61,231 nucleotides of DNA from a virus (IMGVR_UViG_3300043420_000933:1-61231), one strand, 5' to 3'. Positions 1-8,846 are shown, counted from the stretch's first letter. The notes: generated by a model from the sequence alone, not told the origin. A program made the numbers and translations.

Positions 1-489
1 ATATGCTTTCATTTCTCCCTTTTTACCATAACCACCTCTCTTGGTAGGAAACTTACCAGTACCAATTCTAGATCCTTCCTTATCACGTATTGTTTTGATG
101 AGAGCAGATGCACGGGGATCATTGCGGTCATATTTACTAAGAATATCTTCAGCTCGTTTTCTTCTTTCCCCAGTCAATTCCTCAACAATATCATCTCTCC
201 ATTCTTCACTCATATTCACCATAATTGCTTCTGCTGCTTCTGGTGTTTCGGCATAACCTCCATCAAGTAAGTGTGAGAGGATGGTGTCGTAAATATTTTT
301 TTGCTCATCATAGTAAAAAGGTTTTTTCTTTTTAGTAATTGGCTTTTTATTGGCATTCTTTTTTTGTGCTCTTCCATAAAAATCTCCTCTGTTTGTTTGT
401 GCCCTATCATAAGGACCATTAACAGCTCCTTCTCCCATAACAACTTCCATATATGCTTCTTGAAGGTTGCGTAGTTCTTTTGAGTCCAT
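1..489 (-). CDS. Putative internal head protein (partial, 3' end outside window)
   Basis: The gene starts at ATG 489-487 and runs off the left edge, leaving about 163 residues visible. Close to the N-terminus it reads LRNLQEAYMEV; the L-Q-E|A step fits the (L/I)-x-E cleavage rule of the T4 prohead protease gp21. After that come a lysine-rich stretch and a charged, helix-prone region rich in D, E, R and K. No enzyme domain is recognised. It is the most downstream member of a minus-strand run of ORFs with the same type of N-terminus, so I infer a protein packed inside the head and trimmed during maturation. The cleavage-site resemblance is seen; the role is inferred. Confidence 0.7.
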   Translation of the reverse strand, partial: MDSKELRNLQEAYMEVVMGEGAVNGPYDRAQTNRGDFYGRAQKKNANKKPITKKKKPFYYDEQKNIYDTILSHLLDGGYAETPEAAEAIMVNMSEEWRDDIVEELTGERRKRAEDILSKYDRNDPRASALIKTIRDKEGSRIGTGKFPTKRGGYGKKGEMKAY

Positions 490-510
490 TTTTTTATACT
501 TTTTAGTTAT

Positions 511-819
511 TTAGGAAATCTCACCCAGTGCCCGTTGTTTTCTTAATTTCTTAGGATTTTTGGTTCTTGTTGATGGATTGTCTTCATTAGGATAAGAAGA
601 CATTCTATGAGAAGGATAGAGACGTTTATCTCTTCTTGCACTTTCACGACCTGGATAATCAATATCAGTTGGTGATTCTCTTTCTTTTATTCTATCAATT
701 AGAGTTTTATAAACACTAACCTTCTCTGGATTGTCTCTGTGTTTTGCAATCAGGTGTGCTGCCCTAAGTTTAAGTTGTTTAGTTGTTGATTCTTCCAGGA
801 ACTGTGTAAATGTTTTCAT
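511..819 (-). CDS. Putative capsid-targeted internal protein (102 aa)
   Basis: The N-terminus MKTFTQFLEE|S closely matches the T4 IPIII capsid-targeting sequence MKTYQEFIAE|A, including the L-x-E cleavage step. The remaining 90 or so residues are strongly basic and polar, with many R, K, S and P, which suits a DNA-associated internal protein. No catalytic domain is seen. The ATG overlaps the stop of the 17-residue ORF upstream (TAATG), so the two are probably translated together. The packaging role is inferred from the N-terminus and the neighbours. Confidence 0.75.
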   Translation of the reverse strand: MKTFTQFLEESTTKQLKLRAAHLIAKHRDNPEKVSVYKTLIDRIKERESPTDIDYPGRESARRDKRLYPSHRMSSYPNEDNPSTRTKNPKKLRKQRALGEIS

Positions 820-872
820 TAGTCTACCTTCCCTGTCATAAGTCCTGTTATGAACTCTTGATAGGTTTTCAT
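819..872 (-). CDS. 17-residue ORF made almost only of a capsid-targeting sequence
   Basis: This very short ORF encodes MKTYQEFITGLMTGKVD. Its first eight residues are identical to the T4 IPIII targeting sequence MKTYQEFI. The start overlaps the upstream stop (ATGA at 872-869) and the stop overlaps the next start (TAATG at 821-817), an arrangement that favours coupled translation. A purine-rich AGAAG lies just upstream. The expected cleavage glutamate is absent: residues after MKTYQEF are I-T-G, not L/I-x-E. It could be a translated peptide, a decayed internal-protein gene or a coupling leader. Confidence 0.5.
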   Translation of the reverse strand: MKTYQEFITGLMTGKVD

Positions 873-1249
873 TTTTTCTTCTTGGGTGTGCGAATCATTG
901 TATCTGCACCTGCAATTCTATCTGAAGGTGTGCGGTCCCGATAACCTAGATTTCGATACATTTTGGGTAGTTTTTCTTCATATCCTGGTTTTGCAACTGG
1001 AGTCAAAGAAACATTTTTACCAATCTTATCTGCATATCTATGAAGTGCGTCAAATGTTCTTCTTCCAATACCTTCGTTTCTTCGCTTCTCTGGAACCTCA
1101 ATGTTATCTACACGAATATCACCAGAACTTGTAGTATGAACGACATACTTCATTCCTGGTGTTCTTCTTTGTGTGTTTCTTTGAATTGTCTCTAAAGCAT
1201 CAGGTTTTGGTGCCTTTGCTTCTTCCAGGAACTCTCTAAAGGTTTTCAT
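869..1249 (-). CDS. Capsid-targeted GNAT-like acetyltransferase
   Basis: The 126-residue product begins MKTFREFLEE|A, a T4-type capsid-targeting sequence with a prohead-protease site. Residues about 35-105 look like the C-terminal half of a GNAT fold: a strand at 45-52 (RVDNIEV), an acetyl-CoA loop RRNEGIG at 56-62, a helix, and YRNLGYRDR near 98-106. The ATG at 1249 is preferred to the TTG three bases upstream because it overlaps the preceding stop (TGATG). A lysine tail ends the protein. I infer an enzyme loaded into the head and delivered with the DNA, as T4 Alt is; substrate unknown. Confidence 0.65.
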   Translation of the reverse strand: MKTFREFLEEAKAPKPDALETIQRNTQRRTPGMKYVVHTTSSGDIRVDNIEVPEKRRNEGIGRRTFDALHRYADKIGKNVSLTPVAKPGYEEKLPKMYRNLGYRDRTPSDRIAGADTMIRTPKKKK

Positions 1250-1713
1250 CAATAACCACCATCAGTTGAACGTGCCCTTTGTGCTCTTCTCAATTCAACT
1301 TTTTTTACTGGAGATGGACCTGCACTAAAATCTCTTTCTCCTCTATCTCTCTTTTCCTTATCAATCTTTTGCTGTTCTATTTTACCAACACCTCTCTTTC
1401 TTCCAGGTGCTGCTGCTCCACTTCCACCACCACCTTGTGCGTGTCTAGCAGCACCAGGCATACGAGTACCATAAGGTTGAGTTTCCGGATCAATCATTCC
1501 CTGCTTCATTCTACCAGTTGATGCTCTAGGGGATAGTCCTTTTTTTTCAGACTTCTTAACTTTCCACTTTGTTTCACTGCCTTCAGGTTGTCTCTCTACT
1601 CTAGCAGATTTCACTATTAAATGAAGAGGAGTTTTCTTTTCTCCCTTAACTTTATCTTCTTTACGCATTTCAACGAGATATGCTTCTTCCAGGAATTCCT
1701 TAAAAGTTTTCAT
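1249..1713 (-). CDS. Putative capsid-targeted basic internal protein (154 aa)
   Basis: The N-terminus MKTFKEFLEE|A is the same targeting and cleavage signal as in the neighbours. The body is low-complexity and very basic, with a Gly/Ala-rich hinge near residues 93-103 and clusters of K and R throughout, typical of a disordered nucleic-acid-binding protein. No known domain is seen. Its stop overlaps the start of the GNAT-like gene by TGATG. A DNA-condensing internal head protein is the simplest reading. Confidence 0.7.
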   Translation of the reverse strand: MKTFKEFLEEAYLVEMRKEDKVKGEKKTPLHLIVKSARVERQPEGSETKWKVKKSEKKGLSPRASTGRMKQGMIDPETQPYGTRMPGAARHAQGGGGSGAAAPGRKRGVGKIEQQKIDKEKRDRGERDFSAGPSPVKKVELRRAQRARSTDGGY

Positions 1714-1739
1714 CTTTTTATGACTTTTCTTTTATTTAT

Positions 1740-2576
1740 TCAATCTTCACCTCTTCTAGTCTTTCTTCTTTCTTTATTCACAAGAGTAGTAAATGCTCTC
1801 ATAGGACTAATAGCATTACTAATGTCTTTTAATTTTTCACGATTGCCTCTTTCAAATGCGTGAAACTTACCGTGATGAAATCCTGGTTGTTGTGGTTTGA
1901 ACTTTGATACTGGACCTTTATTTGCAACAACTAAGTTTCTTGGGTCATTGCCGTGATACCTCTTCTCTTGTTCTTGCTTCTTCTTATATCTCAACACATC
2001 ACCAGGAGACATATCTTTCATTTCTTTACCAGAAGTTTCTATCTCAGTTGCGTGGTGAAGTTCTGCTCCACGTCTTCTTACTAATCGACGCTTACGTTCA
2101 ACTTTTGCTTTTTCCCTTGGTGTTAGTTGCCCCGTTGCTTGTTTAATTCTTTCTTCTCTTCTTTGCTTTTCTTTTTCTCTAGATTGAATTGAAGCAATTC
2201 CATATCTCGGACTTTCTTTTGTTCCTCTATTTTTAATAAAAGTTCCATCCGGTAGTTTCCCTCCATGATGTTGTATCAACTCATCTTTAGTCGAAAAATG
2301 TTCCTGCCTCCCCTCATCAATTAAATATGCTTCATAAACAAATTCCTCAAAGGTCTTTTTCTTACGATTACGAGCAGGATGAGATACTCTACCGTGGTCT
2401 AGATTTCTTTCTGCCTCACCTCTCTTCTTTCCCCACATTTGCATAAGAGCAGTTCCAGGAGATTCGACGTGTCCTGTTCTTACGAAATCCTTTGGTGATT
2501 GTGCGGCAGATGCTGCCAATGTTGCAAGGAGAAAGGCATTTGCAACTTTCTCCCTCTTTTTTGCTTCGTCAAGCAT
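1740..2576 (-). CDS. HNH-like protein with an internal capsid-targeting motif (278 aa)
   Basis: Residues 1-70 are an extra N-terminal segment with a short Ala/Leu-rich helix (about 12-26). Residues 74-83 read KTFEEFVYEA, the same targeting and cleavage pattern as in the adjacent genes but placed internally. The C-terminal half (about 165-250) has the spacing of an HNH/His-Me-finger centre: paired H174-H175, N214 in DPRNLV and H234-H235-x3-H239. A basic segment lies between. The start is the ATG at 2576; no strong ribosome site is visible, and a hairpin carrying a late promoter lies directly upstream. I infer an internal head protein, possibly a delivered nuclease; the fold assignment is tentative. 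Confidence 0.6.
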   Translation of the reverse strand: MLDEAKKREKVANAFLLATLAASAAQSPKDFVRTGHVESPGTALMQMWGKKRGEAERNLDHGRVSHPARNRKKKTFEEFVYEAYLIDEGRQEHFSTKDELIQHHGGKLPDGTFIKNRGTKESPRYGIASIQSREKEKQRREERIKQATGQLTPREKAKVERKRRLVRRRGAELHHATEIETSGKEMKDMSPGDVLRYKKKQEQEKRYHGNDPRNLVVANKGPVSKFKPQQPGFHHGKFHAFERGNREKLKDISNAISPMRAFTTLVNKERRKTRRGED

Positions 2577-2584
2577 TTAACTAC

Positions 2585-2617
2585 AAAAAGACCTCTGATT
2601 ATTTATCAGAGGTCTTT
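2585..2617. terminator. Perfect hairpin with late promoter in its centre
   Basis: A 10-bp perfect stem (GACCTCTGAT with ATCAGAGGTC) is extended by AAA/TTT on both sides, so it can act as a terminator in either direction. On the minus strand its centre reads GATAAATA (2601-2608), a T4-type late promoter. Transcripts from upstream would contain the whole hairpin; late transcripts starting about six bases past the box would carry only part of the 3' arm into the 1740-2576 gene. Confidence 0.6.
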
Positions 2618-6774: not shown

Positions 6775-6802
6775 ATTTTAAATTATTATCAAAAAATGTC
6801 AA
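6775..6802 (-). promoter_or_regulatory. Host-type sigma-70 promoter for the small-gene operon
   Basis: TTGACA (6802-6797) and TAAAAT (6780-6775) are separated by 16 bases on the minus strand. The -35 box overlaps the stop codon of the HNH gene upstream. It would start a transcript reading genes 6677 down to 2852. Confidence 0.6.
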
Positions 6803-7188
6803 GGAATTAAATTTTTCATTTTGGATGGATTTTTTATTTGTTCTTCGGTAAGTCTTATCCTTTCTTCAATAGGAAGAGAAATAAAAACTTGCCAAGATGC
6901 TCTCCGTTCTGCAGCACTTTTTTCTCTATGACATTTTTTACATAAAAGTTGGATGTTATCAATTGTTTCCTCAATTTTTACATTTGAATACCACCAATTG
7001 TTTGCAACTCCCCTTTGTTTATATTTCAAATTATGGTCAATGTGGTCAAATTCTAAATCTTCAGTTTTTCCACAAAATGAACATTTGTTTCCTAACCTTT
7101 CTTTGACCTTTTGTTTTCTTTTTACTATGTCTTTTTTTCTCCATTCATTTTGGTATTTTTTGAAATCTTCTTTATTTTTATATGGCAT
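6799..7188 (-). CDS. HNH homing endonuclease
   Basis: A 129-residue free-standing HNH enzyme. A basic N-terminus is followed by CSFCGKTEDLEFDHID (zinc CxxC plus the catalytic DH pair) and CKKCHREKSA (second CxxC and the final H). The C-terminal third is helical and charged and may contact DNA. Such enzymes cut a recipient phage genome at a specific site and spread their own gene. The gene sits between a sigma-70 promoter and a hairpin with an internal late promoter; its codon use is as AT-rich as the surroundings. Confidence 0.85.
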   Translation of the reverse strand: MPYKNKEDFKKYQNEWRKKDIVKRKQKVKERLGNKCSFCGKTEDLEFDHIDHNLKYKQRGVANNWWYSNVKIEETIDNIQLLCKKCHREKSAAERRASWQVFISLPIEERIRLTEEQIKNPSKMKNLIP

Positions 7189-8471: not shown

Positions 8472-8846
8472 ATGAAAACCATAAATGGATTTTCCGAATA
8501 TAAAATATCAAAAGATGGAAAAATATATTCCAAAAAAGGAAAAGTATCAAAAATCTGCAATAATTCCTTTGGTTATCCAGTTGTCAATGTAAAAAATGAT
8601 GAGGGTAAATGGAGAATAAAGGCAGTTCATAGATTATTGGCAGAAACATATATCCCAAATCCAAATAATTTGCCCGAAGTAAATCATAAAGATAGAGATA
8701 GACAAAATTACAATCTTGATAATTTAGAATGGGTCAGCAAATCTGACAACAATAAAAATAGAGTCCAATTTACATCCAATATAGACAAAGAAGTGTGGGC
8801 AATAAATTACCTAAAAAATCTGGGTTATACAGTATATAAAGAGTAA
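8472..8846 (+). CDS. NUMOD4/HNH homing endonuclease on the opposite strand
   Basis: The 124-residue product starts like NUMOD4 (INGFSEYKISKDGKIYSKKG), then has the HNH core: WRIKAVHRLLAETYIPNP, NLPEVNHKDRDRQNYNLDNLEWVS. The H-N-H residues of the VNHKD...NLEWV family are intact. It lies on the plus strand between two minus-strand genes that belong together (AAA+ and VWA), so it is an insertion. The C-terminus is short (ends NLGYTVYKE), so a DNA-binding NUMOD module may be missing. Confidence 0.85.
   Translation: MKTINGFSEYKISKDGKIYSKKGKVSKICNNSFGYPVVNVKNDEGKWRIKAVHRLLAETYIPNPNNLPEVNHKDRDRQNYNLDNLEWVSKSDNNKNRVQFTSNIDKEVWAINYLKNLGYTVYKE

What the first reader, a model, noticed from the sequence alone, without database searches (positions are those of the whole stretch)
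1..2576. Cluster of proteins with T4-type capsid-targeting N-termini
Four ORFs start or contain M/K-K-T-F/Y-x-x-F-(L/V)-x-E|A/S, the IPIII targeting and gp21 cleavage signal; a fifth has LQE|A and a sixth is the bare signal. Their bodies differ (basic disordered, GNAT-like, HNH-like), so different cargos have been put under one packaging tag. Such head-packed proteins are delivered with DNA and act first in the host.
Basis: partly seen in the sequence, partly recalled or inferred. Interest (0 to 1): 0.65.

Follow-up and report, generated by a model that had tools for sequence, protein, structure and literature searches.

The report
Cyanophage head-cargo gene cassette island
A freshwater cyanobacterial virus carries a row of unrelated genes that each begin with the short address label phage T4 uses to load proteins into its head, and related viruses show that different cargos are swapped behind that label, which suggests a way to recognise proteins that such viruses inject into their hosts.

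Summary
On the minus strand, ORFs at 1713, 1249 and 819 begin MKTFxxFLEE|A/S; ORF 1740-2576 carries the signal internally (KKTFEEFVYE|A). Dinucleotide shuffles give none. The signal matches the T4 IPIII capsid-targeting sequence at its four tested positions (4, 7, 8, 10), and the same regex hits exactly ipII and ipIII in all six frames of T4. The 'bare signal' (872-819) is a deletion scar of a tagged gene. ORF1 lacks the targeting half, but its S-SCSM1 homologue was found in virions.

Support for head packaging: tagged bodies are strongly basic (72 families, median pI 9.6 against 6.2), two genes have T4-type late promoters, relatives encode gp21/22/23, and tagged SAM lyase, kinase and cytidylyltransferase occur in published cyanophage virions. 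The strict rule alone is not significant there (3 of 7 detected, P=0.11); the wider rule (8 of 12, P=4e-4) was partly post hoc.

The locus is a syntenic cargo island: one N-terminal module plus tag is joined to five different bodies in related contigs. The mini-GNAT and HNH-like cargos are plausible injected effectors with unknown targets. This is a new variant of the T4 internal-protein system.

The parts
1740..2576 (-). 278-aa ORF: ~70-aa conserved N-terminal module (NTm, MLDEAKKREKVANAFLLATLAASAAQ...), then internal capsid-targeting tag, then HNH-like nuclease cargo
   Evidence: (HNH_2, E 0.02, 3 of 12 relatives)
2331..2360 (-). internal tag KKTFEEFVYE|A (residues 73-82); second gp21-like site LIDE|G just after
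   Evidence: sequence; conserved as KKKTFxEFVxE[AS] in relatives
1827..2066 (-). HNH-like core: conserved HHxT (174-177), YHGxxPxN (207-214), late His-rich segment
   Evidence: alignment A1
1249..1713 (-). 154-aa basic cargo, probably disordered (BAS); mature pI 10.4
1684..1713 (-). N-terminal tag MKTFKEFLEE|A
869..1249 (-). 126-aa mini-GNAT acetyltransferase cargo; mature pI 10.3; CoA-loop-like RNEGIG
1220..1249 (-). N-terminal tag MKTFREFLEE|A
819..872 (-). deletion scar: MKTYQEFIT joined to GLMTGKVD*, the two ends of the CWPGYKKKG-type tagged gene that relatives keep whole at this position
   Evidence: 25 of 27 nt match the 3' end of the L005 gene
511..819 (-). 102-aa basic cargo (SML); mature pI 10.3
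790..819 (-). N-terminal tag MKTFTQFLEE|S
1..489 (-). ORF1 (cut by the window edge): MDSKELRNLQE|AYMEV start, no targeting half; homologue of S-SCSM1 ORF89, a protein found in virions by MS
1733..1740 (-). T4-type late promoter-like AATAAATA, 26 nt before the 1713 start
2600..2607 (-). T4-type late promoter-like GATAAATA, 30 nt before the 2576 start; overlaps a terminator-like hairpin

Best explanation
This is a late-expressed cassette island encoding internal head proteins of a T4-like freshwater cyanophage. (1) Each cargo is made late, with the virion proteins. (2) Its tag (aromatic at 4, F at 7) docks it on the prohead scaffold core. (3) The prohead protease gp21 cuts after the tag's Glu (LEE|A/S), freeing a small, very basic mature protein that stays with the packaged DNA. 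(4) Cargo is ejected with the DNA into the cyanobacterium and acts at once: a mini-GNAT modifying a host or defence protein, an HNH nuclease cutting host or competitor DNA, and basic DNA-associated proteins. (5) Cargos are exchanged between phages by recombination at the tag, leaving fusions and deletion scars. Tag identity, cargo diversity and cassette exchange are shown from sequence; late expression and packaging are supported indirectly; cleavage, ejection and targets are inferred.
For: Tag: three exact matches, none in shuffles; matches IPIII at positions 4 and 7 (targeting) and 8 and 10 (processing) as mapped experimentally (PMC9026906); T4 six-frame control gives only ipII and ipIII. 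Physical type: mature bodies of 72 tagged families have median pI 9.56 against 6.17 in 631 other ORFs (P=8e-14), the window's four 10.3-10.5; pI was not used to select them. Timing: 11 of 21 ATAAATA sites lie 26-40 nt before a start codon (0.5 expected, maximum 3 in 500 shifts), two of them before tagged genes. Machinery: relative G001 has gp21 (PF03420, 1.4e-35), gp22 and gp23. Virion detection in other phages: S-CREM2 SAM lyase MKDFDSFLEE, kinase VKRFDAFLTE, cytidylyltransferase MKNFSSFLTEA, Cas9-annotated protein RFASFMAEA, gp13 MKDLHSFLTE; S-SCSM1 NMNAT MKSFLQFLKEA; S-SZBM1 cytidylyltransferase MRFRQFIIEA; Morganella phage MP1 gp136 MKTFQEFINEA, 59% coverage. ORF1 homologue SSCSM1_89 is in virions. 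Swapping: the same NTm+tag is joined to HNHa, HNHb, HNHc, BAS or a CWP-type body.
Against: No proteomics exists for this phage. With the strict tag rule only 3 of 7 tagged proteins in four MS-characterised phages were detected (P=0.11); the broader rule (8 of 12, P=4e-4) was partly shaped by S-CREM2. Several tagged small proteins were not detected (SSCSM1_30, SSZBM1_191 and 192, MP1 gp135). The S-CREM2 authors warn that co-purification is possible (PMC10665884). The HNH assignment is weak and its model poor. No target is known.
Confidence: 0.78

Rival explanations
1. The tag is a docking signal for some other virion part or complex (tail, baseplate, membrane); the LEE|A match is incidental and nothing is cut or kept in the head.
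For: Cleavage was not observed for these proteins. The NTm module contains a hydrophobic stretch, compatible with membrane or tail association.
Against: The tag agrees with IPIII at both the targeting and the processing positions. The L002 cargo fusion keeps only the cleavage half (DEDLEE|A) exactly at the cargo boundary. The basic mature bodies resemble T4 internal proteins.
Confidence: 0.1
2. The proteins act inside the producing cell, and the presence of tagged proteins in virion preparations of related phages is contamination by abundant late proteins.
For: The S-CREM2 authors raise this possibility. Some tagged proteins are not detected.
Against: NMNAT/cytidylyltransferases recur in independent proteomes (S-SM1, S-SCSM1, S-SZBM1, S-CREM2), and those I could read all bear a tag. 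Kinases of S-CREM2 and S-CRM01, both reported in virions, both begin with a tag-like sequence.
Confidence: 0.08
3. The shared N-terminus is only common descent of duplicated genes whose bodies diverged, with no packaging role.
For: Tags within one locus are slightly more alike in codons than expected (0.627 against 0.562, P=0.012).
Against: Bodies include unrelated folds (GNAT, HNH-like, ADP-ribosyltransferase, CTP-transferase, P-loop/zeta toxin, DPBB). The same NTm+tag carries different bodies in different phages, so tags move independently of bodies.
Confidence: 0.04

Closest known systems
T4 internal proteins IPII/IPIII (and IPI) with their capsid-targeting sequence, processed by gp21
   Same: Same 10-residue signal with the same functional positions; L/I-x-E cleavage motif; small, very basic mature proteins; T4-type late promoter motifs
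   Different: Bodies show no homology to IPs; several tagged genes or remnants lie in one row; one tag is internal behind a ~70-aa module; cargos include enzyme-like folds and swap at the tag
Virion-carried enzymes of cyanophages (NMNAT/cytidylyltransferase T4-GC190, APH-like kinase, SAM lyase; S-SM1, S-SCSM1, S-SZBM1, S-CREM2, S-CRM01)
   Same: Same kind of N-terminal tag; reported in virions
   Different: Different cargos, elsewhere in the genome; the held papers searched here do not connect them with the T4 signal
phiKZ/SPN3US head ejection proteins with propeptides cut by the prohead protease
   Same: Propeptide cleavage and ejection of many head proteins (PMC9026906)
   Different: Different propeptides and protease specificity; no short interchangeable tag (own knowledge, not tested here)
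AcrVA5 and other small GNATs
   Same: GNAT fold similar in size to the window's GNAT cargo (Foldseek prob 1.0, TMt 0.62)
   Different: About 20% identity; no evidence for an anti-CRISPR role; other GNATs match as well

Membership tests
T4-type capsid-targeted internal proteins | Targeting residues: aromatic at 4, F at 7 | tested here: met
   Met by ORFs at 819, 1249, 1713 and, internally, 2576; not met by ORF1 (1-489)
T4-type capsid-targeted internal proteins | gp21 processing motif L/I(V)-x-E followed by A/S/G | tested here: met
   LEE|S, LEE|A, LEE|A, VYE|A and IDE|G, ORF1 LQE|A; the bare remnant fails (ITG)
T4-type capsid-targeted internal proteins | Small, basic mature protein | tested here: met
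   pI 10.3-10.5, 10.8-22.9 kDa
T4-type capsid-targeted internal proteins | Late expression | tested here: inconclusive
   Late promoter-like motif before two of the genes, strong positional statistics; no transcript data
T4-type capsid-targeted internal proteins | Phage encodes gp21 protease and gp22 scaffold | tested here: inconclusive
   Not in this 61-kb fragment; present in relative G001
T4-type capsid-targeted internal proteins | Protein present and cleaved in virions | not testable with these tools
   Only relatives and analogues have proteomes
IPI/IPII/IPIII protein families (mature bodies) | Sequence homology of the mature body | tested here: not met
   PHROG 2667 'internal head protein' matches weakly and only residues 1-15 of the GNAT protein
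GNAT acetyltransferase superfamily | GNAT fold | tested here: met
   Model pLDDT 77; Foldseek top hits are GNATs, prob 1.0; Pfam below cut-off, E 0.027
GNAT acetyltransferase superfamily | Acetyl-CoA loop [QR]xxGx[GA] | tested here: met
   RNEGIG in the window, RGKGIA in relatives
HNH endonuclease | HH...N...H catalytic pattern and fold | tested here: inconclusive
   Invariant HHxT and YHGxxPxN; HNH_2 E 0.02 in 3 of 12 relatives; structure model poor, pLDDT 56

The most novel reading that the evidence does not exclude
The 10-residue tag is a general, interchangeable packaging code across aquatic T4-like phages. Recombination at the tag shuffles a large, mostly unknown arsenal of head-delivered effectors (nucleases, acetyltransferases, ADP-ribosyltransferases, zeta-toxin-like kinases, SAM lyases, NMNATs), so injected effectors can be found by the tag alone. 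The window's mini-GNAT and HNH cargos would be such counter-defence or host-takeover effectors.
Probability: 0.5. Interest if true: 0.8.

Novelty: new variant of a known kind. Interest (0 to 1): 0.62.

Why it matters
If true, a short sequence rule identifies which of the many unknown genes in abundant aquatic myoviruses make proteins injected at the first moment of infection, where counter-defence matters most. It would also explain why NMNATs, kinases and SAM lyases keep appearing in cyanophage virion proteomes. The rule is cheap to test by N-terminal peptide analysis of existing MS data, and it points to natural modular cassettes for loading proteins into phage heads.

Tried and rejected
Close homologues of BAS (1249-1713) and of the HNH ORF in named phages: none. 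PDB search with the HNH profile: no relevant hit. A fold search on the HNH model was not run because its confidence was too low.

The bare signal as a functional micro-peptide: rejected, it is a deletion scar. ORF1 as a bearer of the same tag: rejected, it has only the cleavage half, although its homologue is a virion protein.

Strict-rule MS enrichment alone is not significant and is reported as such. Morganella phage MP1 was chosen as a fresh test with the rules already fixed: 1 of 2 tagged CDS was detected.

Tag codon homogenisation is only weak evidence for recombination at the tag (P=0.012 against locus codon usage). In alignment A3 the invariant M1, K2, F7 and E10 are forced by the selection pattern and are not used as evidence.

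Full report
WHAT IS THERE. The window is a 61-kb IMG/VR virus record whose DNA matches among named phages are nearly all Synechococcus phages. On the minus strand at its left end lie, in order of transcription: a 278-aa ORF (2576-1740), a 154-aa ORF (1713-1249), a 126-aa ORF (1249-869), a 17-codon ORF (872-819), a 102-aa ORF (819-511) and an ORF cut by the window edge (489-1). Several overlap by a few bases. Three start with MKTFxxFLEE[AS]. The 278-aa ORF carries KKTFEEFVYEA at residues 73-83. A degenerate DNA pattern for the tag hits three times and never in 100 shuffles.

THE TAG IS THE T4 SIGNAL. In T4 the IPIII capsid-targeting sequence is the first ten residues. Mutants showed that residues 4 and 7 matter for targeting and 8 and 10 for processing by gp21, which cuts after L/I-x-E (PMC9026906). 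The window tags agree at all four positions. Applied to all six frames of T4, the strict regular expression hits exactly ipII and ipIII.

CARGO. The bodies are unrelated. The 126-aa protein is a mini-GNAT: model pLDDT 77, and Foldseek's top hits are GNATs with probability 1.0, among them the anti-CRISPR AcrVA5. The 278-aa protein has an HNH-like pattern (HHxT, YHGxxPxN) and a weak HNH_2 match in relatives; its model is poor. The 154-aa and 102-aa bodies match no Pfam family. Mature pI values of the four are 10.3-10.5.

THE ISLAND IN RELATIVES. Scans of viral contigs with the HNH and GNAT proteins gave 34 loci, some on the same contigs. Upstream markers and gene order are conserved while cargos vary: upA > upB > NTm-tag-[HNHa | HNHb | HNHc | BAS | CWP-type] > BAS > [GNAT | GN2 | IHH | none] > [CWP | ALA | IHH | SML] > MDS-type gene. 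The N-terminal module plus tag is joined in frame to different bodies in different contigs, so the exchange point is at or near the tag. Cargos are also fused: in L002 a tagged protein runs into the GNAT through HNDEDLEE|AKAPKS, which keeps the cleavage half of the tag at the boundary. L006 has NTm-tag-CWP-type-HNH in one ORF.

THE BARE SIGNAL IS A SCAR. The 17-codon ORF MKTYQEFIT|GLMTGKVD* is the start and the end of the CWPGYKKKG-type gene that relatives keep at this position: L023 8650-9498 begins MKTYQEFITEAKKCW and ends KTGIMTGKVD*. The last 27 nt match L005 at 25 positions.

ORF1. It has LQE|A but no targeting half. It matches S-SCSM1 ORF89 both at the first 16 residues and in a central segment at 44% identity. 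S-SCSM1 ORF89 is labelled a virion protein in a record whose virion proteome was determined by MS.

HOW WIDESPREAD. With the other loci this gave 191 distinct tagged proteins in 72 body families that BLASTP does not join. Pfam domains among them include CTP-transferase, ADP-ribosyltransferase, zeta toxin/AAA, GNAT and DPBB. Their mature bodies are far more basic than neighbouring ORFs (median pI 9.56 against 6.17, P=8e-14). This property was not used for selection and is what the T4 internal proteins are known for.

VIRION EVIDENCE. In S-CREM2 (52 proteins by MS; PMC10665884) the non-structural virion proteins other than the two endolysins carry tag-like N-termini: SAM lyase MKDFDSFLEE, kinase VKRFDAFLTE, cytidylyltransferase MKNFSSFLTEA, and the Cas9-annotated protein with an internal RFASFMAEA; so does hypothetical protein 13, MKDLHSFLTE. 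S-SCSM1 NMNAT (MKSFLQFLKEA), S-SZBM1 cytidylyltransferase (MRFRQFIIEA) and Morganella phage MP1 gp136 (MKTFQEFINEA) are also in virions. T4-GC190, the cytidylyltransferase cluster, was found in S-SM1 virions (PMC3037559); its members in S-SM2, P-SSM2 and S-SRM01 carry tag-like starts.

The statistics are mixed. With the strict rule, 3 of 7 tagged proteins in four phages were detected (1.26 expected, P=0.11). With the functional-position rule 8 of 12 were (2.35 expected, P=4e-4), but that rule was widened after seeing S-CREM2. Small tagged proteins such as SSCSM1_30 could be missed by MS for technical reasons, but this is unproven.

TIMING AND MACHINERY. ATAAATA motifs cluster 26-40 nt before start codons (11 of 21 sites, 0.5 expected), and two of them precede tagged genes. 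gp21, gp22 and gp23 are present in the related 247-kb contig G001; the window fragment does not reach that region.

MECHANISM. Shown from sequence: tag identity, cargo diversity, exchange at the tag, basic cargo. Supported indirectly: late expression and head packaging. Inferred: docking on the scaffold, gp21 cleavage, ejection with DNA, and the effector roles of the GNAT and HNH cargos.

NOVELTY. That T4-like phages may use the signal to load various proteins has been proposed (PMC9026906). In the held library only that review contains both 'capsid targeting sequence' and 'cyanophage', and further searches found no report linking the signal to cyanophage virion enzymes or to a swap island. 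Most subscription journals are absent from that library, so earlier reports cannot be excluded.

Noticed in passing
T4 AF158101 18966-19130 (gp61.1): T4 gp61.1, annotated as hypothetical, begins MKTFKEFIKE|D, a capsid-targeting-like start.
   Followed up: no
S-SCSM1 91626-91835 (ORF93): A 69-aa protein labelled a virion protein ends in KKRTFKEFLEYIE*, a tag-like sequence at the C-terminus instead of the N-terminus.
   Followed up: no
L002 6014-6979; L006 7230-8669: Natural fusions of two or three cargos; L002 keeps LEE|A at the cargo boundary, a possible polyprotein cut by gp21.
   Followed up: partly
window 1-2576 tags: All three N-terminal tags use TTC CTG GAA GAA for FLEE although CTG is only about 8% of Leu codons in the window; tags within a locus are slightly homogenised.
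   Followed up: partly
G004 118139-119560: An ORF resembling a copia-type reverse transcriptase (by eye) on a contig otherwise related to cyanophages; possibly a chimeric contig.
   Followed up: no
window 6799-7188 and 8472-8846: Two small ORFs that look like HNH/NUMOD homing endonucleases (by eye), each preceded by a late promoter-like ATAAATA.
   Followed up: no
S-P4 64680-66269; P-RSM4 106025-107122 (T4-GC119): The AKKCWPGYxKKGTQKLFGKTYNRCVK motif of the CWP cargo sits inside a larger cyanophage protein, annotated 'structural' in S-P4; T4-GC119 is described as part of a possible mobile carbon-metabolism cassette.
   Followed up: partly
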